Shown here: in pieces, positions 36,846-50,600 of the stretch
Numbering within the stretch: the stretch's first letter is position 1
Layout: every line of letters starts with the position of its first letter
Assembly: GCA_025435555.1 (NCBI GenBank)
Contig: JAIWWG010000008.1
Coordinates: 248,001 to 312,000 of the forward strand
Reading direction: 5' to 3'
Length of the DNA: 64,000 nucleotides
DNA from: Chytriomyces cf. hyalinus JEL632
Lineage: Eukaryota; Chytridiomycota; Chytridiomycetes; Chytridiales; Chytriomycetaceae
Notes under the pieces: model-generated
The model's input: the letters and a program-made list of their open reading frames with translations, nothing else
What the model was told of the DNA's origin: nothing
The model's database searches: none
Position numbers and translations under genes: made by a program

Positions 36846-37040
36846 TTGATCTTTTTGTTTTTTTTTTACTTGTTATTTTTATGTCAGAAAGCGTGCATCC
36901 AATCCAAGTGCATGCTCCGCTGACCAGTCCTTCTTTTCTCGGTCCGAACGCAGCGTGTTGTCCGAGAATGCTGATGCGAGGTAAAGCCGTGGAATCGAAA
37001 GGAAGGAAAAAAAAAATACTAAATCTTTGAAAAAAAAATA
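36846..37040. promoter_or_regulatory. Divergent promoter, GPN1 / exon-repeat gene
   Basis: Less than 200 bp separate the GPN1 ATG from the earliest ATG of the plus-strand repeat gene (37041; a second in-frame ATG is at 37092). It contains poly-T and poly-A runs; no known site was recognised. Confidence 0.35.
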
Positions 37041-40000
37041 ATGCTTGGAGCAGATTCACAGGTTTCCACTCTCATCAAAAAGTACGAAATTATGTCGCAT
37101 TCAGAGACACCAACATCCGAACCGACACCGGCCCTCGCCAGTCCTCCTGAGATCAACGCAGACACCACAGTCATGCACGTTGCTGAGAAAGCTGAACAGC
37201 CGCAGCAGAGCGAATCCCACGTCGTGGAGGAAGCTTCGAGCCTTGTGAAAGGGACTGAAACCACCCAATCGGAACCGGCCGCTGCGTCCGAATCTCACGA
37301 AGACGAGTCGATAGGCATTGCAGGTAGCGTAGACACAGCCTCCAAATTGTCATTCATTCCCTCTTTGCCCAAATTACAATGTATTACATCACATGGCATG
37401 AAGGAGGAGGGGGCTTTCCCACACCTCACTCTCTCCGCCCAACCCTCCCTTTATAAACCATGCGCATAAAGAGAGAACTCGCCCCTTCTCTTCACAAGCA
37501 TTGCTGCGTCCCTCCTACCGGCCCTGTTTGCAAAGGCCATGATCCAGCGCAGCACTTTAATTTTGAAAAATTTTTTTCACCCAAATTGACTGTTTGAACC
37601 CAACCAGACGAGCCTCCAGCTCACGCATCGAAACGAGCATCGCTGCTCGACAAGTTCCGGTACGTTCTCTCTGTCTGGTTTACATCGAACACCTTCTTAA
37701 CCTCACTCTCTGCCACTGCAGATTCAAGAAGGCCCCACTCCATGAACCAACCGAGCCTGCAGCGACCGAAGACTCCACTGAGCATGCACCAGCTGACAAC
37801 AACGTCGAAGCTGGAAAACCGAAATCGCCCTTCCAAGGATTCAAATTGCCGTAAGAAAATTCCAAAAAAAATTTTCTCGTCGGCGATTTAAGGGGAATCA
37901 ACCCTACGGGCAATTTTGAAAATATGCAGGTTCATCAAACGATCGCTTTCGACCCAGTCTGCGGAATTGTCCCACCCAGAGGTGACAGCGGCTGCCGTTC
38001 CAGAGGGTCCAGAGGAAGTGGCCACCCCAGCGCAAGAGGAAGTGACGCCAGAGCAAGACACGGTTCCCACCGCTGTCAAGAGCGAAGGCAAAGAGAAAGA
38101 TGCTCCGGCCAAATCAACCAAGAAACCATTCGGTGGATTCGTTTCGCCGTATGTTTTTCTGTTTTTTAGTTTCAATGTTTGGTGCTCACACATTTTCGAC
38201 GCAGATTCAAGAAGCAGGCTGACAGAAATTCCGCCGCAATTTCTGGTCACGTTGAGGAGACTACTGCTATTGCTGCCAATGAAGTCATTGCTACGATTGC
38301 AGCAGTCGAGTCTGCGGCTGAACCTATCGTGTCCACCCCTATCGAAAATCAGAACGCAGACAAGAGGGCGACCGTGGAAACCGAAAACGAAGAAGTAAAA
38401 GACGAAAATCCAGCTAAAGCCGCCAAGAAACATTTCGGCGCATGGTCACCGTTGAGTTCAACTCGCATTTGATCTCGTCATGTTCGATCTGTGCTTAATG
38501 TGTTTCTGTTATAACAGGTTCAAGCGGTCTGCTGATAAAGCATCCAGCGCTGTCAGCTCGCAAGCTGATACCACCAAGTCTGCTGAAGTCATTGATGTAG
38601 TGCCAGCAGCCGCAGAGGCAATTGAGCATCACGAAGCTGTGGGGACGGAGCCGTCAACTTCGAAAGAAGCGAAAGAATTGGATGCAACAAACGCAGAAAC
38701 GATTGTTGGCGATGAACACGCGAAAGAAGGAAGTCCTTCAAAGGCTCTCAAGAAACCTTTCAGCGGATTCTTGGCATCGTTGAGTCTTTTTTTCCTTTAA
38801 GCTTGTCAGCGTCAACAATCTCACCGTTTTGTTATTAGCTTCAAGAAATCGGGCGAAAAGGTCCCTGTCACCAGCAACGACAGTACAACCGTCCCCGAAG
38901 TTACTGTGACTGAAGTTGCTGAAGTTGCTGTAACTGAAGTTGCTGAAGAAGCGACAGAACTTGCCAAATTGCCTGTCGATGAAGCTGCAATTGCAGCCGA
39001 AGCAGCGCCAGCATTGGAGTTCGCTCCCTTCCCATCTGCGGGAGCCGAGATTGAAGTAGAAGAATCGACGCGGGATCAGGCAAAAACCAGGAAACCTTTC
39101 GGATTTAGTTTCTCAGGGTAAGTGAAATATCCTGCCTTTGATTGGGGCTAAAGTTTCAATTTTTCAGATTGAAGCGATCTGAAAAAACTGCGAGTGCATC
39201 AGCGACGTCAGAGCCAACAACAGAATCAACTGGAGAGATCGCATCCAGCAAAACTGAAGCCGTCATTGCGGAGGCATCAAAAACTGAAGATAAGGATGCG
39301 CAAATCTTGGCAGGTTCGGCTGAAGAAATTGCGACTGCCGAAGCAACTTCGCCAACCGCGGCTGGAGGCGAAAAATTGAAGAAGATCTTCAGCAACTTTG
39401 GAACCATGTGAGTTCCCAGATTTGTTTTTGTTCTCTTGTGTACTTAAATACAACCCAAATACAGCCTTAAAAAAGCCGCTGCAAATCCAGCAGCACCGTC
39501 GAATCCGGCCGACAAGCAAATTGCGTCAACAAAAGGCGAAGACACGACCATCGTCGAAGTTCCTTTAGAAAGCCTTGCCGTCGCGAGCGCCGAAACTCAA
39601 GAATCGGAGGATAAGGACATACATTCCGCACCCGCGGCAGTTGTCATCGTTGACGACAAGAAGGAATCCGTCTTTGCTACTTTGGGTCGAAAGTTTCCGT
39701 ATGAACTCTTTTTTCTTCTTTTGCAGGCACTTGTATGATTGCTGATTCTGTTTTTCATTCAGATTCAAGAGAAGCTCCGGAAGCCCAGCTCCTCCAAAAG
39801 ACCAAAGCGAAGCTTCCGGCTCAAGTGACGAGGAGGGCGAGCCAAATGCAAGCGAACCCCTCAAAACCGATGAATCGAAATCATCTCCTGCAGATCACAA
39901 ATTTTTGGGATACGTCCGGTCGCTGAGGTTCTGCGCAGTTTCTTCAAGTTGTCGCAACGGATTCTAAATTACTCCTTTTTTTCCACTGCAGTATCCCAAA

Positions 40001-40670
40001 ACTGCATCTTTCTAGCAACTCTGCCTCTGCTGCACCAGCTGCTGAGGCAGCCGAGACGGTACAAGTAGTTCCCGCAGACGAAATAGAAGCTGTAGCGGCT
40101 GTCGTCGAGGTTCCTGTGGCTACCACAACTAAAGCAGTCGCAGACAAGAAAAAGTTTAGCGTCTTGGGAATGCTGAAAAAGACTCCGTAATTCATTTATT
40201 TTTTTTGGCGTTCAGTCTCGTGGAAGGATTTTACTGACCAGTTTTGTGCAAACAGCAAATCCACCGTGGATTCAGTCGAGAAGAGCGTGGCGCAAGAAGT
40301 TGCTGTGGTTGCTGTTGCCGAAAAAGAGGAAGTTGCTGCTGTTGCCGTTGCAGCCAAAGAAGACGTTGAGCAAACGGTGGAGGAGGTGAAGGCTCTCGTT
40401 GCCGAAGCAGTGGCAGCAGTGAAGAGTGTGGATGCGGGACCAGCCGAAATCCCAGCTGTCGCTGAGAAAGATGTTATTGCACAAGTGCCAGCGAACGTGA
40501 TTGCACTTGTGGTGCCGGCGGCGAGTATGAAAGAAAGTGAAGTAGCAAATGAAAAAGCAGAGGTGACGAAGGTGGCCGACCCGAAGGCGGAGGTGGTGAC
40601 GGACTTGAAGGGGGCCCACACCGAAACGGTCCAATCAACAGTCGAGGAAGTAGCTGCGACTTCGACCTAG
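37041..40670 (+). CDS. Modular Ala/Glu-rich protein with repeated basic-aromatic motifs, unknown
   Basis: Twelve exons (37041-37323, 37608-37659, 37722-37850, 37930-38148, 38205-38450, 38518-38778, 38839-39117, 39168-39407, 39465-39698, 39763-39927, 39992-40186, 40256-40670) encode 905 residues, or 888 from the ATG at 37092. Ten of the eleven introns are phase 2; only the first is phase 1. Each internal exon codes for an acidic A/E/V/S/T-rich spacer. Each junction restores a short motif of the type KKPFGGF-xx-FKKS: KKPFGGFVSP/FKKQA, KKPFSGFLAS/FKKSG, RKPFGFSFSG/LKRSE, KKIFSNFGTI/LKKAA and so on. Basic-aromatic segments in an acidic disordered chain recall MARCKS or AKAP12-type membrane/calmodulin-binding, PKC-phosphorylated elements, but no homology is claimed. 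There is no signal peptide or membrane helix. The pattern suggests growth by exon duplication. Function is unknown. Confidence 0.8.
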
Positions 40671-40892: not shown

Positions 40893-43800
40893 TTAGCCGA
40901 GGCGCCGATCATTCGTTGCAACATGACCCGGAATTCCCATAAATGGCTGTGCCACAGGTGTCGGAAACATCCCAGCACTCGCAGGACCTCCGCCAGCATA
41001 ACCGCCCTTCCCAATCGAAATCTCGGCCAGCTGATGCAAAGAACTCAACTCGCTTCTCACACCAGACTGACTTAGAGGCCCTGGTATCCGCAAAGACGCG
41101 CTGGAGGACGGCAAGCTTGGAGCATGTGGGGGACCGAAACTCTGAAAGACAGAAGGCCCGACATGAGACATGGGAGCATCTTGCCGCTGCAGAGACATGC
41201 GTTGTTGCTGCTGAGAAGAGGGTAGAGGTTGTGGCTGTGGTTGACTCAAGTAGAGAAAGTCCGTGTTGGCAAGCCCACCGAGACCCGCCAAATCAAAAAA
41301 GCTCAATCCATCCCAAAGGCTCAGATCATTGATGCCAAGCCCTTGACCCATGCTGAACTCAAACGGCCCGCCAGAGACAGCGCCGTTGCCGAAAAGTGAC
41401 GAGTTGGTGAAATTTGAAGTCGCATGCCACGAGTCTGGACTGACGCCGGTACCCATGGAGGAAACAGACGGAACATTCGAATTCAAATTTTGAACGAAAC
41501 CTGCGTTACTAGGAACGCCACCGCCGGCAGTCAAAGACGGTCCTCCAGTGCCACTGAACGGTCCTCCTGCCGAAGTAGTTCCAGTGCCCGTTGCTCCACC
41601 GTGCTGCTTGACACTGTCAAACAGTTCATCCAAACGAATTCCTTTTGCAGCCAAGAAATCGCAGATTGTAACCCAACTCCTTTCGGCGCTCACATAATTG
41701 CGACGCATGATGTCTAAAATCCGCATGCACTTTTCCAGCCCGTTGACGCTCCATTCAAATCGCGCCTTTCCTTCACTCGAGTTTCGATCGCTTGCAAGCA
41801 ACTGACTGATGAGAACTGTTACACCCATCATGGTGCAGTACATGAAATTTGGGAACAGAACTGTTGCCTCATTATCAGCTGCTGGGTTTTCAAGACGACT
41901 AATCACTCGGGTAATGGCCGCGGCACTCTCAAGGCATGCAGGGTAATCTATCCGGTTATAAGCAGTTCGATGGAACAAGATGACAGTGCTGTGAAACATG
42001 AGGGCCATCACAGATTTGGCGTTCCAGCGCTCAGAAAAGGTCAGATTTCGCCAAGGCTCGTCGAGACCCATCCACCATGCATCCAATCGAGACTTGATTT
42101 CCTCAGCAAATATTTTCACATCTGCAGGGCGAGCACGGTTTGCAAAGCGAAGTATACTGGCGATGATGAGTGAAAGATCGATGTGGTGTTTGAGAGTTGC
42201 AATTTCCGGAGTCGTTCCTTCAGGGTATTCAGCATCCCAATCATTATCATGGATTCCAAGGGGCCGTCCCGTCCAAATTCTAAATTCAGTGATCAATGTT
42301 AAAAATCGGACAATTTCATGTCAGATATCCTACCCGGTGTATGTTTCCATAATCATGACACAATGCCACGTTCTATTCCGAAGAGCAATGTAGTCGGGCG
42401 TGAAGACTCTATGCTTGACTCCAAGGCTATGAATACTTCGATGCAGACCGAGCTGCAAGTGGCACAATAAAATCAGCAAAGTGTTAACGAAACAAAAAGA
42501 TTCATCGTCACCTCTTGCGATAAACGAACAGCAATCCCCATATAGCTCCACGACCCTTGATAGTATTTACTCGCAATTCCCGTCGCAACCGTGAGCACGT
42601 TAAAGACCAAACTCTGGATGACGATCATGTCGGGGATACCAAAGTGATCGAGCATAATTCGTCGATATGAGTCCATCATGTGTTTAAGCACGGCGTCATG
42701 GTCTTTGAAATCATTGATGTCCGATAGTTGGGCTGTAGATGACTTATTATAGGATTTCCAATGGTTCACAGAGGGGGTACTGTTAATCATCAGGGACAAG
42801 ACCGATGTGAGGAGCAAAGCAAACTGCCAGTGATCGTCAATGTGAAAGTGGGGCAGCTTTCGCAAAGATTCTAATTGATTTTCGAACCAACTTCGCTCGA
42901 CCATTGGAAATTGAGGCTGGTGCGATGATATCAGTGGCTCATCCATCTCAAAGGTGATGCGCTTTTCTTACATGCATTTGCTCCCAGAAAATAGAGAGTA
43001 TATGGTCCAACAATTCATCCGGCAATGGCACGAGATCAAACAGGGTAATCGGCTTAACCACACCCTCTCCAGAGCAATGCTTGCATTTGGCGAGTGTTTC
43101 TTCAACGGTTTCTTGTTTTGTCGCGGTGTTTTGAGCGACTGCTGCGGGATTATACCCGAGTAAAATCCCGTTTCGAAATCGTGGGTTGGATTTCCACGGA
43201 TTTTTATCGTCTTTTGGACCACCTTGAAACAAATGTCAACACATGAGGAGCCCACTGAAACAGTTCGAAGCATTACCTAAACTACTGGTGCTTCCAAAGA
43301 AAAGCAATCGGTTTTCTTCGGCGTTTATCACGAATCCACCAGATTTCGACTGAGATGCGGTGTCCATACTCGGAGTAGATGGAATAGCGTCTTTCGTGAC
43401 AGCTTGAAATCCATCCACAGCACTTTCTACAGACAATGCAGAGGCAGCAATTGGTTGGCCAGCGAGTTGGTCCAAACGTGGCGGCGGTTGCTGTGGCTGA
43501 GCAGCATAGCCAGCTGGACACTCTGAGTAGATGAAGGATGATTTGTTCGCGTGGCTTATGGATGACTCGAGTGCAGCAACTCTGCGTTCGAGCATTTCGA
43601 AGCGTTTCTTTGACGAGAGGGGTGATGCTGCGTCTCGCTCTTGTTTGACGAGAGCATCGACAGATTGCTGATAGGGAGACTGCGTTTGTAACGACAGACA
43701 TAAGCCGATGCTCCCAGAAAATTGAAGCCCATAGTACTCACATACACGCACAAGTGGGCCTTGTTGGCGGCAACGCACTTTTCGCAAGGTGTTTCACCGG

Positions 43801-44081
43801 TGCACTTTACACTAAACCCAAGTATGCCAGAACAAACGCCATCCATATTGCATGAGATCCTTTCCATCCATCCAGACTGAATAAACAGAGACTTACCGTT
43901 TGCGCCGGCACAGATCGCATGCACGCACGATCCGCCTCCGTGCGCCTGCCACAGTTCCATGCTCGTGGTCATTGTCCTGCTCGCTGTCCGAGCCCGTCTC
44001 ATCATCGTGGCCGCCGTCTGCTCCTGCGATGCTGTTCTGGTCCTTGGCTGTGCGTCGTCGCTTGCCCGATTCCATCGCCAT
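40893..44081 (-). CDS. Zn2Cys6 transcription factor, copy A of a tandem trio
   Basis: Seven exons (44081-43897, 43811-43742, 43679-43277, 43222-42972, 42916-42512, 42452-42334, 42279-40893) encode 939 residues. The zinc cluster RRIVRACDLCRRKR/VKC with TPCEKC and a final HLC binds DNA as in Gal4-type factors, and is itself split by an intron. A coiled-coil-like linker follows. The fungal_trans (middle homology) domain includes MIVIQSLVFNVLT, GLHRSIHSLGVKH, ALRNRTWHCVMIMETYT and WTGRPLGIHDNDWDAEYP. The C-terminus is Gly/Ser/Gln-rich and likely activating. The ATG at 44081 is the first in frame. Two introns (in the zinc cluster and at METYTG/IWTG) are absent from copies B and C. Targets are unknown; the neighbourhood gives no pathway hint. 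Confidence 0.88.
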
Positions 44082-44161
44082 TGACCGATTTGCGGATGAG
44101 TATTTTTGGGATGACAAATTTGTGCGTGGGCGCTTCAATCAATCATTTGAAAAGGGGCACT

Positions 44162-47100
44162 TTATTTGGCATTGTTGATGCTGCCATTGCGCGCGTACAT
44201 GTCTGATGCTGCGTGTCGATGCAGCGGCTGTCCAGAGTAGACCGGCCCCTGAAGCCTGGCGTAAGAGTCCACCCCCGCCTGCATCCCAGCCACGCTCCCA
44301 ACGCTCACTTCGGCCAGTTGGTCCAGCGCGCTGCCGTTGTATGTCATGCTTTGCGATAAATTGTGTTGTCGGTGTGGGAGGGGAAATTGCGGCGCAGTTG
44401 AATATGCGGCCAGAATATTCGATGACGTGTGTTGCGGAGTAACGGGCGCAATTGGGACTTGATTGAAAGTTTCGTGTGACTGATGGTGATTGGGCACACC
44501 CGACAGCATGGACAAGTCGGGATGGGACGATATTCCGCCCAATCCGGCCAAATCGAACAAGCTCAAACCATCCCATAAGCCAAAGTTAGGATCCATTCCG
44601 AAACTATTCACGCCGGTTCCAGGCGGTATTGACAAAGCACCAAGCTGCTGAAGCTGCAGTTTCTGAGGAGATGTCAAACTGATGGGGGTGCTAAATTGTG
44701 CTGCCGAAACGGATCCAGTCCCTCCAAAGAGCGCTGATGCGAGACCTGAATTCATTCCCATCATTGTCCCTACGGATGCGCCCGCGGGTACTGGAAGAGA
44801 AGGCGCGATGGTGCCATTGCCGTTTCCAACATTTCCTGGCGCAGAGCCACCTGAAAAGTTCACTACTGGACGCGCTCCTGCCTCGCCGCCACCATTCAAG
44901 GTCCCCTTCTCACTGAATCGCATTGAAGCAGATCGACCGACTCCATTCATGATACTTTCCACCGCCCCACCCCCGTTGCTCTTGACAGCAGTCAACAGAT
45001 CGTTCAATTTAATCCCTCGAGTCATCAAGAAATCCAAGACTGTTTTCCAGCATCGCTCCGCGGCCAAGAACACACCGCGCAAGTTATCAAATACACACAT
45101 GCATTTTTCTAGCTGCCGGACAGACTCAACAAATGTTTGCGCATCCCCTTTCGCACTCGCCGAAAGGAGTCCGCCAATGTGAACTGTACATGCCATCATT
45201 GCGCAGTACGTAAAAGTGGGAAATAGAGCCACACATTCGTTTGGTTGCAACGGCGCTTCAAACCGAGAAACTAAATACGTAATTCCACGGGCAGCATTCA
45301 CACACTCCTGCGAATATGTATGGTTATGCGCAGTCCGATGAAAAAGAATCACGGCGCTGTGATACATCAAAAGCATCAAGGCTTTCGAGTTCCATCGTTC
45401 TGCAAAACGAACATTCCGCCAATCGCTGTCCAGTTTGGACCACCACAGATCCAATCGAGATGATACATCTTTTTCAAACGCAGCAGCATCTGCAGGACGA
45501 GCACGGTTCGCAAAGCGCAGGATGCTGGCAATAATCTGCGCCAAGTCAAAGTGATGCTTCAAAGTGGCGATTTCAGGACATGTGGCAAGAGGATACTCTG
45601 CATCCCAGTCGTTATCGTGAATGGCCAATGGTCTACCCGTCCAGATGCATGTATACGTTTCCATAATCATGACACAGTGCCAAGTGCGATTTCGCAGCGC
45701 AATTGTCTCCTTGTCAAATGTCTTGTGCTTGACGCCAAGTTGCGACACGCTTCGGTGCAGTCCCAGCTGAATTTATAGAATAATTTTGAGCCCAAATATC
45801 TTGAATGAAAGTCGCAGAATCGTAGTCACCTCTTGGGATAATCGCACGCAAATTCCCATGTATTGCCACGCCCCAGTAAATCGAGATCCACGCGCGCAGC
45901 CACCCGTGAGAACCATGAACAACAAACTTTGCACCATGATCACATCGGCAATTTCGAAATGATCAAAGAGTATTCGTTTATAGCTGTCAATCAGGTGTCG
46001 AAGCGCCACATCGTGATCCGCGAACGGGCACTCTGAGTATGTTGAATCATCCGTCGACGACATGGCATCTTCCGGTTTGATCTCAGCCGACTTGCTGACC
46101 CGCCAGTGTGTCAAAGATGGGGTAAAATTCAGCATGAGCGCAACAACGGACGTCAGTAACAGAATAAATCGCCAATGTTCTTCAACGCTGATGAGGGTCT
46201 GCCGCCGAAGTCGCGCGAGTTGTAAATTAAACCATGTTTGATCAATAAGTGGGAATTGTGGCTGTCGCAAAATGGGTCAGGAAACGGTCTGCCGAAAAGA
46301 ATAGAAATGACAAACATGAAATTGCTCCCAAAAGTTTTTCAAAATGTGATCGACCAAATCTTCCGGAAGCGGAATCAGTTCCCTCATTTCGACAGTCTCG
46401 GTCACGAGCGACAGAATGGATGCAGAAGTCTGCTCTTTTGCTTCATATAACCCTTTTTCCTGGTATGGATCCTTCTCTTTCATAAAGTCGGATGAGTGGA
46501 CGCTGGGCGAATTTTCAGAGCGCGGCGTTTCTGAGGCTTCTTTTGCTTCGTCGGCCAACGTTCGTGCTGGGATATGAACCATGAGGATACCGTTTATGAA
46601 TCGTGGGATTGCTTTATACAAATGCGCATTGTGGGTCCGACCGCCTGATTGAAATGGATGAGCAAGCTCGGACGATTTTGATGGATAAGAAACAAAATGG
46701 GAAACCATACCGAGGGCACTGGTGCTTCCCCAAAATGTCAAGGCAGTTTCTTCGGTATTGATCAGAAATCCTCCAGTTTTATACGAAGAGTCCTTTTCCA
46801 AGTCTACTCTTTCGTGAACTGCAGGTTTCGGAAGGGGCGGTGGTGGCAAGGCAACTGATTTTAAATCTTTGATGAGGGGATTCGTTGGGGCGTTTTGGGA
46901 TAACCTCTTCAGCTGCACTTGCTGAGGTGATAGCGGTTTATAAGTAAAGGGTAGTACGCTGCTTCCATTCTGCGACGGTCGGTGATCAACAGCTTGACTG
47001 TCCGATGATGGATTCGCTTGAGGGTTGAAATCAAAAACCTCGCTCTGAGACATGGATCGCGCAGTAAAATGATGATGGGGTGGCGTAGAACTTGCCGAGA

Positions 47101-47585
47101 GATTAGATGCGGTCAGACTCTGCTTCAGATGAGGTGGAGACAGATGTTCGAGGACTGAGATGAGGCTGGCCAAACGTTGCTCGATGCGTTCGAGACGCAC
47201 GTCGATCCTGTCCAGCTTTGACGGCTCATCAGCGTCGGGTTCCTTCTTTTTGGAAACTGGCGGAACCTGTGTTGAAGAGATTCGAGTACGGTCAACAAGC
47301 CCATCTCCTCACCGCCAATGAGGCAACCATCGGAACCGTCGCAATCGCCAACAACCAGTATCATGACGTATCACAGGTCATCACCACCACACTCACATAG
47401 ATACACAGACTGGGCTTTCCGGCACAATTCGCGCAGGGCAACTCGCCGCTGCACCGAGCCCGCTTCTTTCGGCACGGATCGCAAGCACGCACAATCCGCG
47501 CACGTTTGTTCAAGCCACGGTCCTCGTCGTCCGGTCCTCGAGGGTGCTGGTTGAGAGCGGAGGTGTCCGTGTGGCTTGCGTCCAT
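44162..47585 (-). CDS. Zn2Cys6 transcription factor, copy B of a tandem trio
   Basis: Five exons (47585-47397, 47266-46711, 46644-46316, 46261-45830, 45766-44162) encode 1,036 residues. The zinc cluster is ARIVRACDPCRKKRARC with ELPCANC and SLC, all in exon 1. The middle homology domain matches copy A in many blocks (IPLPEDLVDHILKNFWEQF, MVQSLLFMVLTGGC, ALRNRTWHCVMIMETYTC). A long low-complexity tail contains NFGLWDGLSLFDLAGLGG, a motif shared by all three copies near the C-terminus and perhaps an activation or interaction element. An in-frame frame extends upstream of 47585, but the intergenic position and alignment with the other copies favour this ATG. Only about 80 bp separate its stop from the start of copy A, so copy A's promoter is very short or lies within copy B. 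Confidence 0.88.
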
Positions 47586-47674
47586 TTGTAAGTAAAGCAG
47601 AAAGCTTTCAAAATAAATAACGCTATTTTTATACTGACTCTGAACACACTCTCTGAACATTAAATAGCGACAAT

Positions 47675-50600
47675 TTAACCATTGTACGGATTGGGACCAC
47701 CTTGCCCATCCGGATACACCACCCGATAAGTCTCGCCCCAGTCCATGGATCGGCCTTCCCCCGTGTTCCCCATCAACTGTCCACTGTTGCTGACCCGTGG
47801 ACCGGGCTGTTTCGGAGCATACACGGAAGCAGCAGGTGTCAGAAGTTTGTGTGGAATTGCCCCTCCAGCTGGCATTTTGTGCTGCTGTTGCTGATGCTGG
47901 ATCATGGGAATAAACTGCTGTGGTTGTTGCTGTTGTTGCTGTTGTTGCTGTTGTTGCTGCGATCGCCATTGCGGCTGCGGCTGAAAGGTAGCCTGCATTG
48001 CTGAGTTTGCCGGGATTGGGTTCACAGCGCGACTTTGAGCTTGCATCATTTGATGACTTGCCTGATGTGGAGTGGATAACATGGCTTGAGGTCGTTGTGG
48101 AGTTGGGAACGACGGCGGCACCGGAGAGGTAGTTTGAAATGGTGCCTGGAGCAGTTGATTATTCGTTACTTGATGATTTTGCAGCTGAAAGCTGTTGAAA
48201 TTGGGCGGTTGTTGAATCTGCTGTGGTCGTTGAGGAAATTGGTTGGGTTGCGGTTGGGAAAGGCCGAAGTCGCCCGTTCCAAGTCCCCCCAGTCCTGCCA
48301 AGTCAAACAAACTCAACCCATCCCACATGAAACCTAAATCCCCTCCACCCAATATACCAATATTAGCTGATGGAGATGATGAAGATGTGGATGATTCATT
48401 TCCATTCGTTCCTAGCAGGCCCATGTGTCCTCGGCTTCCAACTGACCGATTTCCTGACATGGGTTGTTGTTGCAGAGAAGGATTCACGTTCTGTATCATT
48501 TCATTCCGTGCCAGGGCTTCTTGTATAAAACCATAAGATCCCAGTTGCGTATTTGAAGAAGCCTTCTTGCCCGCTTTTGAAGACGCAACAAGTTTGTCTG
48601 CGCGTTCTGAACCGGCAGAAACCTTCCCTTCTGCTGATAATACCATCGAGGGAGAGCCACCCGAAACGCTCGCCAAGTCACTCATGCCCGCAATGGCATC
48701 CGCAACGGCGCTTCCGCTCTTCGCCGCAACAACCAACTCATCCAAACGAATCCCTTTCACCGCCAAAAAGTCCAAAATCGTTTTCCAGCACCGTTCAGCG
48801 TCCACAAACACACTGCGTAGCGTGTCAAACACACGCATGCATTTTTCAAGGTTTCCAACTGCTTTCACAAGTCGTTCCACGCTGTCGCTTGTGTTGCTAT
48901 GGCCGAGCATTTGTCCAAAGTGCACTGTGCACGCCAGCATTGCGCAATACGTGAAGGTTGGGAATAGTGCAATACATTCGTTTTCGTCCGGTGGTTTTTC
49001 AAAACGAGAAACAAGGACCGTAATTGCGGCTGCGGAGGCAAGACACACTGGTTGATCAATGCGATTGTGCGCCATTCGATGGAATAAAATCACTGCGCCG
49101 TGGTACCTGGATGAAAAAATTTAATACGACATTTTGAAGGGAACTACGAATCTCACATTAGCGCCATCAATGCCTTCGAATTCCAACGCTCTTTAAACAC
49201 GAGCGCCCGCCAGTCATCATCCAACCGTGCCCACCATCCCTCAAGCCGCGCAGTAGTATCACGAATAAACTCTTCCACATTGACAGCCCTCGCACGGTTG
49301 GCAAACCTCAAAATACTCGCAATAATTTTCGCAAGCTCAATATGATGCTTAAGAGTGGCTGTTTCCGGACTGGTTACTGCAGGATCCTCCGCGTCCCAGT
49401 CATTGTCATGAATTGCCATAGGCCTACCCGTCCAGATGCACGTGTAGGTTTCCATAATCATGACACAATGCCAAGTACGATTTCTGAGCGCCATAGTTTC
49501 TCGATTGAACCGCCTATGTTTGACTCCAAGTTCGGCAATACTTCGATGCAATCCAAGTTCTTGTGACATGCGCACCGCCATTCCCATGTACCCCCAGATT
49601 CCCGAGATTCTTGCGCCACGCCCACACCCGCCCGTTAGAACCATAATCAGGAGACTCTGAACAACATAGACATTTGGAAATTCGAAATGCTCAAAAATGA
49701 TTTTTTTGTAACTATCGACGAGGTGCTTGAGGACAACATCGTGGTCGGTGAATGCGGACGCTTCGCTCGTAACTGGAGTTGGAAGTTGCGGGGAGGCAGA
49801 AGACGGTTTTTTCCAGTGGGTCAGAGAAGGTGTGAAATTGATCATCAGCGCAACTACGGACGTCAGGACCAGCACAAATTGCCAGTGCTCCTCAATGTTA
49901 ATGGATGGAATGCCGCGGAGGTGGGCAAGCTGTGTGTTGAACCATTCCTTTTCAATCACTGGAAATTGAGGCTACAAAATTTTTTGTGGCGGTCAATGTG
50001 CGATGCCGAACATCAAAATAAATAAAAAAAGGGACGCACATGAAACTGATTCCAGTAATGCTTCAAGATATGGTCCAGCAGTTCGTCCGGTAACGGAATA
50101 ATTTGGCTGAACTCTTTGGTGTCCTCCAACAAAAACAACAGTGACCTAGATGTGGCACCAGCTCCCAAACATTGTAACTGAGAAGGTTCCTTCGCCGATA
50201 ATTTCGAAACTTTGCTCTCCACTTCGCATTGCGAGGAGGGCGGGTCCACATATGCAGATGGTTTCGGCGCCGGATCCACCCACTTTCGAAATTCAGTCGT
50301 CTCGACATAATTTGAATTACTTCCAATGTGGACGAGAAGCACACCATTGACAAATCTGGGTATTGATTTGTACAAGTGAGCCTTATTGTTGGTTCCTCCC
50401 AAAGCGCTCGTACTGCCCCAAAATGTTAGGGCAGTTTCTTCAGAATTGGTTAAAAATCCGCCCGTTTTGAAAGTGGGTTTTGCGCCGACTTGCGAAACTT
50501 GAGATTGGCCCACACGTGAATTGTCCACTCTTGCAGGATCATGTGGATGAGTTGGCCAAGCTGATGCGAGGTCGTCATTCGATGGAGAAACAAAGTTTGG

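What the first reader, a model, noticed from the sequence alone, without database searches (positions are those of the whole stretch)
37041..40670. Exon-repeat gene whose phase-2 introns each split a basic-aromatic motif
Ten consecutive introns are phase 2, and nearly every one falls inside a recurring K/R-K-P-F-(G/S)-G-F-xx-F-K-(K/R)-S element; the rest of each exon is an acidic A/E/V-rich spacer. This is what serial duplication of one symmetric exon would leave, since exons can be added, lost or skipped without a frameshift. The motifs resemble phosphorylation-switched membrane/calmodulin-binding segments (MARCKS, AKAP12), which would make the protein a multivalent tether with an exon-tunable number of sites. 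I know no described family with this layout.
Basis: partly seen in the sequence, partly recalled or inferred. Interest (0 to 1): 0.78.

Follow-up and report, generated by a model that had tools for sequence, protein, structure and literature searches.

The report
Fungal repeat gene with split motifs
A gene in a flagellated fungus appears to have grown by repeated copying of one frame-neutral exon whose boundaries cut through a short lysine- and phenylalanine-rich segment, giving a chain of sticky patches that may work as a multivalent tether; this way of growing is known from other genes, but I found no relative of the protein in the collections I could search.

Summary
The layout is real as a sequence model (no RNA). 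Twelve exons, 905 aa, 37041-40670 (+): introns 2-11 all phase 2, exons 3-11 all multiples of three. 25 of 28 aromatic residues lie within 10 residues of a junction (null mean 7.0). A basic-aromatic element sits on 8 of 10 phase-2 junctions; 10 and 11 fail. Its full form occurs only at junctions 4 and 6. Between these two, pS is 0.72 and pN 0.25, against pN 0.72 with register scrambled: old copies with a constrained motif. 89 background junctions show no K/R excess and little aromatic excess, so a splicing by-product is unlikely. No relative appeared in Pfam, PDB, own genome (three exon queries) or, for a 264-aa part, viral and prokaryote contigs; fungal proteomes could not be searched. Phase-2 exon arrays that cut through a repeat are already described; a basic-aromatic fungal one would be a new variant. 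MARCKS/AKAP12-like membrane tethering is my best functional guess, unproven; it is not filed as a member of either. Exon-tunable valency has no evidence yet.

The parts
37041..37323 (+). exon 1: ATG, acidic leader (94 aa, net -13); ends in phase 1. A second in-frame ATG lies at 37092
37324..37607 (+). intron 1, 284 nt, phase 1 (the odd one out)
37608..37659 (+). exon 2: 16 aa, ends ...LLDKF, phase 1 in, phase 2 out
37722..37850 (+). exon 3 (2-2, 129 nt): starts FKKAP, ends KSPFQGFKL
37930..38148 (+). exon 4 (2-2, 219 nt): starts FIKRS, ends TKKPFGGFVS
38205..38450 (+). exon 5 (2-2, 246 nt): starts FKKQA, ends AKKHFGAWS; a donor 6 nt upstream would also give phase 2
38518..38778 (+). exon 6 (2-2, 261 nt): starts FKRSADK, ends LKKPFSGFLA
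38839..39117 (+). exon 7 (2-2, 279 nt): starts FKKSGEK, ends TRKPFGFSFS; spacer holds a 24-nt tandem repeat (38897-38948)
39168..39407 (+). exon 8 (2-2, 240 nt): starts LKRSEK, ends LKKIFSNFGT
39465..39698 (+). exon 9 (2-2, 234 nt): starts LKKAAA, ends VFATLGRKF
39763..39927 (+). exon 10 (2-2, 165 nt): starts FKRSSGS, ends KFLGYVRSL (junction 10 off-profile)
39992..40186 (+). exon 11 (2-2, 195 nt): starts IPKLHLS, ends KKKFSVLGMLKKT (junction 11 off-profile)
40256..40670 (+). exon 12: terminal 137 aa, A/E/V/K-rich acidic tail (net -14), stop at 40668-40670; contains a 33-nt tandem repeat (40294-40368)

Best explanation
Origin (better supported): an apparently single-copy gene of a flagellated fungus that grew by serial tandem duplication of one symmetric phase-2 exon. 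The exon begins with the second half (F/L-K-K/R-S) and ends with the first half (K-K-P-F-x-G-F) of one basic-aromatic element, so most exon-end to exon-start joins rebuild an element. Acidic A/E/V-rich spacers drift while the elements are kept. Function (inferred): a protein probably disordered for most of its length, whose eight or so basic-aromatic patches (net +3 to +5), repeated every 42-92 residues and separated by acidic spacers, bind acidic surfaces cooperatively, most likely phosphoinositide-rich membrane, in the manner of the MARCKS effector domain and the AKAP12/SSeCKS polybasic domains: lysines for electrostatics, phenylalanines for insertion, serines beside the basic pair (present at 4 of 10 junctions) as possible phosphorylation switches. 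Shown here: sequence layout, motif placement, constraint. Inferred: splicing, disorder, membrane binding, phosphorylation, multivalency. I put roughly 0.8 on the origin and 0.35 on the function.
For: Ten of ten introns from 2 to 11 are phase 2, with the cut at the same place of the element for 8 of 10. 25 of 28 aromatics within 10 aa of a junction. Exons 4/5/6 similar, z 6.1-8.7; in the genome search the exon 5 query region hits exon 6 at E 0.017, while the exon 6 query hits exons 5 and 4 only at E 0.11 and 0.16. pS 0.72, pN 0.25 for junctions 4 v 6; pooled junctions 3-9 pS 0.81, pN 0.54; register-scrambled pN 0.72. At 89 background junctions K/R is not raised. 0 of 45 skips create a stop. For function: MARCKS effector domain uses lysines for PIP2 and phenylalanines for insertion (PMC4607481, passages); SSeCKS has three phenylalanine- and lysine-rich domains that bind phosphoinositides (PMC4214753, passages).
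Against: 31 of 36 exon pairs are not similar above z 3 and trimmed cores never are; the best 2 of 45 intron pairs reach z 3.5 and 3.1. Junctions 10 and 11 lack the motif. pN for junctions 4, 5, 6 together is 0.46, partly because junction 5 is one residue shorter. Five of 11 donors are off-pattern and there is no RNA. Patch charge is far below the MARCKS effector domain (12 lysines in 25 residues). No Met-Gly start. MARCKS likeness 32 of 1000. Charge-hydropathy puts the whole protein on the folded side (|R| 0.070 against 0.121), so disorder is not demonstrated. Helical moments 0.02-0.60, so no shared amphipathic helix.
Confidence: 0.45

Rival explanations
1. Same gene, different function: alternating acidic spacers and basic-aromatic patches make a sticker-and-spacer polyampholyte that self-associates (charge and cation-pi contacts) into a condensate or cell-cortex meshwork; the ligand is the protein itself rather than a membrane.
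For: Charge is segregated: trimmed cores of exons 3-11 are net -5 to -15, junctions +2 to +5; aromatics are nearly absent from spacers (0.4%). Imperfect repeats, aromatic stacking and charge are described as drivers of phase separation (PMC7752083, passages).
Against: Only 28 aromatics in 905 residues, few of the basic residues are arginine (4% of motif residues); no assay.
Confidence: 0.22
2. Same gene, cytoskeletal or calmodulin ligand: patches bind acidic actin, microtubule or septin surfaces, or calmodulin, as a multi-site linker.
For: Basic-aromatic segments commonly do this (recalled); SSeCKS has an F-actin binding domain and scaffolds calmodulin (PMC4214753, passages).
Against: No Pfam family over its cut-off; no shared amphipathic helix (moments 0.02-0.60), which speaks against calmodulin.
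Confidence: 0.2
3. Introns were inserted in parallel into an already repetitive intronless gene, at a splice-prone site inside each repeat, rather than exons being duplicated.
For: Introns share little sequence and trimmed exon cores do not align.
Against: Needs ten insertions in the same phase and mostly at the same motif position; phase 2 is only 33 of 89 in the background.
Confidence: 0.12
4. The junction bias is a by-product of exonic splicing signals (lysine-rich codons near exon ends), not a protein motif.
For: Lysine is preferred near exon boundaries in human and mouse, and such biases are phylogenetically widespread (PMC2374712, passages). 9 of 89 background junctions here also pass the basic-aromatic test.
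Against: At 89 background junctions K/R is 0.103 near and 0.112 far, F/W/Y 0.092 and 0.077; for the 33 of phase 2, K/R 0.105 and 0.113, F/W/Y 0.086 and 0.081. The motif also needs P, which is reported as avoided near human and mouse boundaries. Amino acids are kept while synonymous sites are saturated.
Confidence: 0.04

Closest known systems
Tetrahymena leucine-rich-repeat genes with 90-bp exon arrays
   Same: long arrays of symmetric exons flanked by phase 2 introns, interlocked across the repeat (PMC6564038, passages)
   Different: folded LRRs, exactly 90-bp exons in tens of thousands, ciliate; here 129-279 nt exons, no recognised fold, one gene found, fungus
NLR (NLRP/NOD) leucine-rich-repeat exons
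   Same: frame-preserving exons with the boundary at a constant place in the repeat; skipping of NLRP3 exons is shown (PMC6642158, passages)
   Different: structured human LRRs; no skipping shown here
AKAP12/SSeCKS/Gravin
   Different: three domains, N-myristoylated isoform, kinase-scaffold regions; no Pfam match here
MARCKS
   Same: basic segment of lysine, phenylalanine and serine (PMC4607481, passages)
   Different: one effector domain with 12 lysines, myristoylated; here about eight weaker patches, no Met-Gly start, no Pfam MARCKS match

Membership tests
Symmetric phase-2 exon-array genes (a kind of layout, not a family) | consecutive exons of 3n length flanked by introns of one phase | tested here: met
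   exons 3-11, introns 2-11, on an RNA-less model
Symmetric phase-2 exon-array genes (a kind of layout, not a family) | exons homologous to one another | tested here: inconclusive
   clear for exons 4-6 (z 6.1-8.7), weak for 5/9 and 6/8 (3.4, 3.7), not detected for the other 31 of 36 pairs; trimmed cores never above z 3
Symmetric phase-2 exon-array genes (a kind of layout, not a family) | intron at constant position in the repeat | tested here: met
   8 of 10 junctions on an ungapped profile, 2 of 10 not
MARCKS | Pfam MARCKS match | tested here: not met
   Pfam scan of the 905-aa model to E 10 listed 3 families, none MARCKS and none over its cut-off. The PF02063 search of the own genome found nothing but had no positive control
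MARCKS | N-terminal Met-Gly myristoylation signal | tested here: not met
   model starts MLGADS, or MSHSET from the second ATG; 5' end not confirmed by RNA
MARCKS | effector domain sequence | tested here: inconclusive
   32 of 1000 shuffled effector domains fit the junction profile as well as the real one
AKAP12/SSeCKS | Pfam match to an AKAP model (that such models exist is recalled) | tested here: not met
   none among the 3 families listed
AKAP12/SSeCKS | kinase anchoring and phosphoinositide binding | not testable with these tools
   needs binding assays

The most novel reading that the evidence does not exclude
A fungal multivalent membrane (or cortex) tether whose number of binding patches is set by how many symmetric exons are kept, by splicing or by strain-to-strain exon copy number: because the intron lies inside the binding patch, an exon gained, lost or skipped changes valency by one while keeping the frame and, in most joins, rebuilding a patch.
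Probability: 0.1. Interest if true: 0.72.

Novelty: new variant of a known kind. Interest (0 to 1): 0.42.

Why it matters
In the papers I saw, growth of genes by symmetric exons is described for animal modules and for folded leucine-rich repeats. A fungal case that multiplies a short charged-aromatic patch in a probably disordered protein would show the same route building multivalency, and would give a compact system for testing how valency evolves and whether fungi use frame-neutral exon skipping.

Tried and rejected
Paralogues. A KKPFxGF codon pattern gave 4 places in the genome, 2 in this gene; the flanks of the other two read to me as a coatomer/WD40-like gene and an unidentified one, no search made. 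A 107-aa query (end of exon 4, exon 5, start of exon 6) gave 3 matches in this gene and 3 elsewhere at E 2.2, 2.2 and 4.6; I looked at two of those three flanks, which read as a DDHD-like and an RNA-binding gene, and took them as chance. Exon 6 and exon 12 queries matched this gene only. The other exons were not queried. A pattern for F-K-K/R-S after an acceptor gave 34 places against 31 for the reversed control, so it is uninformative by itself; only this gene has two on one strand within 5 kb.

Relatives elsewhere. A 264-aa part was scanned against viral contigs (35 pattern matches, 0 confirmed) and prokaryote contigs (84, 0 confirmed). These are not fungal collections and the tool reaches close relatives only. 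The PDB sequence search of the 905-aa model gave 0.

Background introns. The first caller drifted to an implausible donor consensus and was dropped (phase-2 share 0.19-0.29); the regex caller was used instead (9 ambiguous clusters dropped at the setting used). It would miss the 5 of this gene's 11 introns with off-pattern donors.

Other. The bacterial promoter scan is not meaningful here. Structure prediction was not run: the spliced protein is not a contiguous translation of the window, and single exons without relatives would tell little. The splicing-signal rival was tested and set aside.

Full report
Setting. The window is part of a 37.8 Mb genome in 242 contigs. The genome has three exon matches to IFT46, a flagellar transport family (its role is recalled), over the cut-off; 0 of 14 control genomes rang. 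Beside the finding lie reading frames with the fungal Zn(2)-Cys(6) and fungal-specific transcription factor domains and a PF03029 (ATP_bind_1, GPN-type by recall) gene. A flagellated fungus fits; 'chytrid' is inference, and no species was identified.

Gene model. From ATG 37041 to the stop ending at 40670 (+), twelve exons join into one frame of 905 aa. Intron 1 is 284 nt and phase 1; introns 2-11 are 50-79 nt and phase 2; exons 3-11 are multiples of three. All 11 introns are GT...AG. The donors of introns 1, 5, 6, 10 and 11 are off the GT[AG]NG[TA] pattern, and 5 of 11 introns have no YTRAY site. For intron 5 a donor 6 nt upstream is also possible and also phase 2. Retained, 9 of 11 introns hit a stop and the other two shift the frame. 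By my reading of the sequence about 195 bp separate the ATG from the start of the opposite-strand PF03029 gene, leaving little room for an upstream coding exon.

The motif. Ungapped around the ten phase-2 junctions, position +1 is F in 6 of 10 (L in 2, I and K once each), +2 is K in 7, +3 is K or R in 9, -6 is F in 5, 0 is P in 5, +4 is S in 4. The fullest versions are at junctions 4 (KKPFGGFVSPFKK) and 6 (KKPFSGFLASFKK). Leave-one-out with 500 shuffles each: junctions 2-6 are reached by 6, 0, 0, 4, 0; 7-9 by 23, 14, 13; 10 and 11 by 334 and 111. So the claim holds for eight of ten. Flanks are basic and aromatic, spacers acidic and alanine/valine-rich. Of 28 aromatics 25 lie within ten residues of a junction; 20000 rotations with permuted exon lengths gave mean 7.0, maximum 22.

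Is it a splicing by-product? Lysine is preferred near exon boundaries in human and mouse and such biases are widespread (PMC2374712, passages). At 89 background junctions of this genome K/R is 0.103 near and 0.112 far, F/W/Y 0.092 and 0.077, and 9 of 89 pass the test passed by 8 of 10 here. The background comes from a simple pattern-based caller and is rough.

Duplication. Background phase 2 is 33 of 89. Of 36 pairs among exons 3-11, five exceed z 3: 4/5 6.1, 4/6 7.2, 5/6 8.7, 5/9 3.4, 6/8 3.7; with eight leading and sixteen trailing residues removed none does. Among 45 intron pairs the best are z 3.5 and 3.1, not convincing. Between motif copies 4 and 6 pS is 0.72 and pN 0.25; junctions 4-6 pS 0.77, pN 0.46; junctions 3-9 pS 0.81, pN 0.54; register-scrambled motif codons pN 0.72, random spacer codons 0.65. 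Samples are small (about 12 synonymous sites for the best pair). The simplest reading is old duplications with motif constraint; parallel intron insertion needs many coincidences of phase and place.

Consequence of the layout. All 45 joins that skip one or more exons between phase-2 introns stay open, and 33 of 45 chimeric junctions pass the basic-aromatic test; single skips of exons 3-10 pass, of exon 11 not. Skipping would be tolerated; that it happens is not shown. Exon skipping is described as more frequent in animals than in other eukaryotes, and symmetric modules as playing a minor role outside them; a reviewer there objects that most skipped exons lie in disordered regions (PMC6335736, abstract and passages).

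Function. No Pfam family reaches its cut-off, no PDB chain matches, no paralogue shows with three exon queries. The composition suggests weak multivalent binding to acidic surfaces. MARCKS pairs lysines for PIP2 with phenylalanines for insertion (PMC4607481, passages), SSeCKS carries three such domains (PMC4214753, passages), and a review describes AKAPs as disordered scaffolds with three polybasic membrane-binding regions (PMC7752083, passages). Against: lower charge per patch, no Met-Gly start, weak alignment (32 of 1000 shuffles), no consistent amphipathic helix, and a charge-hydropathy value on the folded side. I file it as possibly working like AKAP12, not as a member.

Known or new. Phase-2 exon arrays interlocked across a repeat are described for Tetrahymena LRR genes (PMC6564038, passages), and boundaries at a constant place for NLR LRR exons (PMC6642158, passages). 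I made six literature searches; they list at most 15 papers each, out of up to 21,376, and the listed rows showed me no fungal or basic-aromatic case. I saw seven papers, all by passages and one (PMC6335736) also by abstract. Most subscription papers are not held. I rate it a new variant of a known kind.

Noticed in passing
window 40893-49971, minus strand: An apparent tandem cluster of three related fungal transcription-factor genes: Zn_clus at 47361-48158, Fungal_trans at 44162-45772 and 49153-49971; the frame at 40893-42320 has no Pfam match at E 1 but looks alike by eye. Three frames (40893-42320, 44162-45772, 47675-49120) share a peptide close to WDGLSLFDLAGLGG, possibly an activation or docking motif.
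   Followed up: partly
window 36846-37040: Short upstream region (about 195 bp by my reading) between the opposite-strand PF03029 gene and this gene, a possible divergent promoter.
   Followed up: no
window 38897-38948 and 40294-40368: Small tandem repeats (24-nt and 33-nt units) in the spacer of exon 7 and in exon 12, a second, intronless way in which the acidic parts may expand.
   Followed up: no
G000:C131:12954-13166 and G000:C172:254550-254762: Two contigs give hits with the same reported values and frame length, which may mean a duplicated or haplotype region in the assembly.
   Followed up: no
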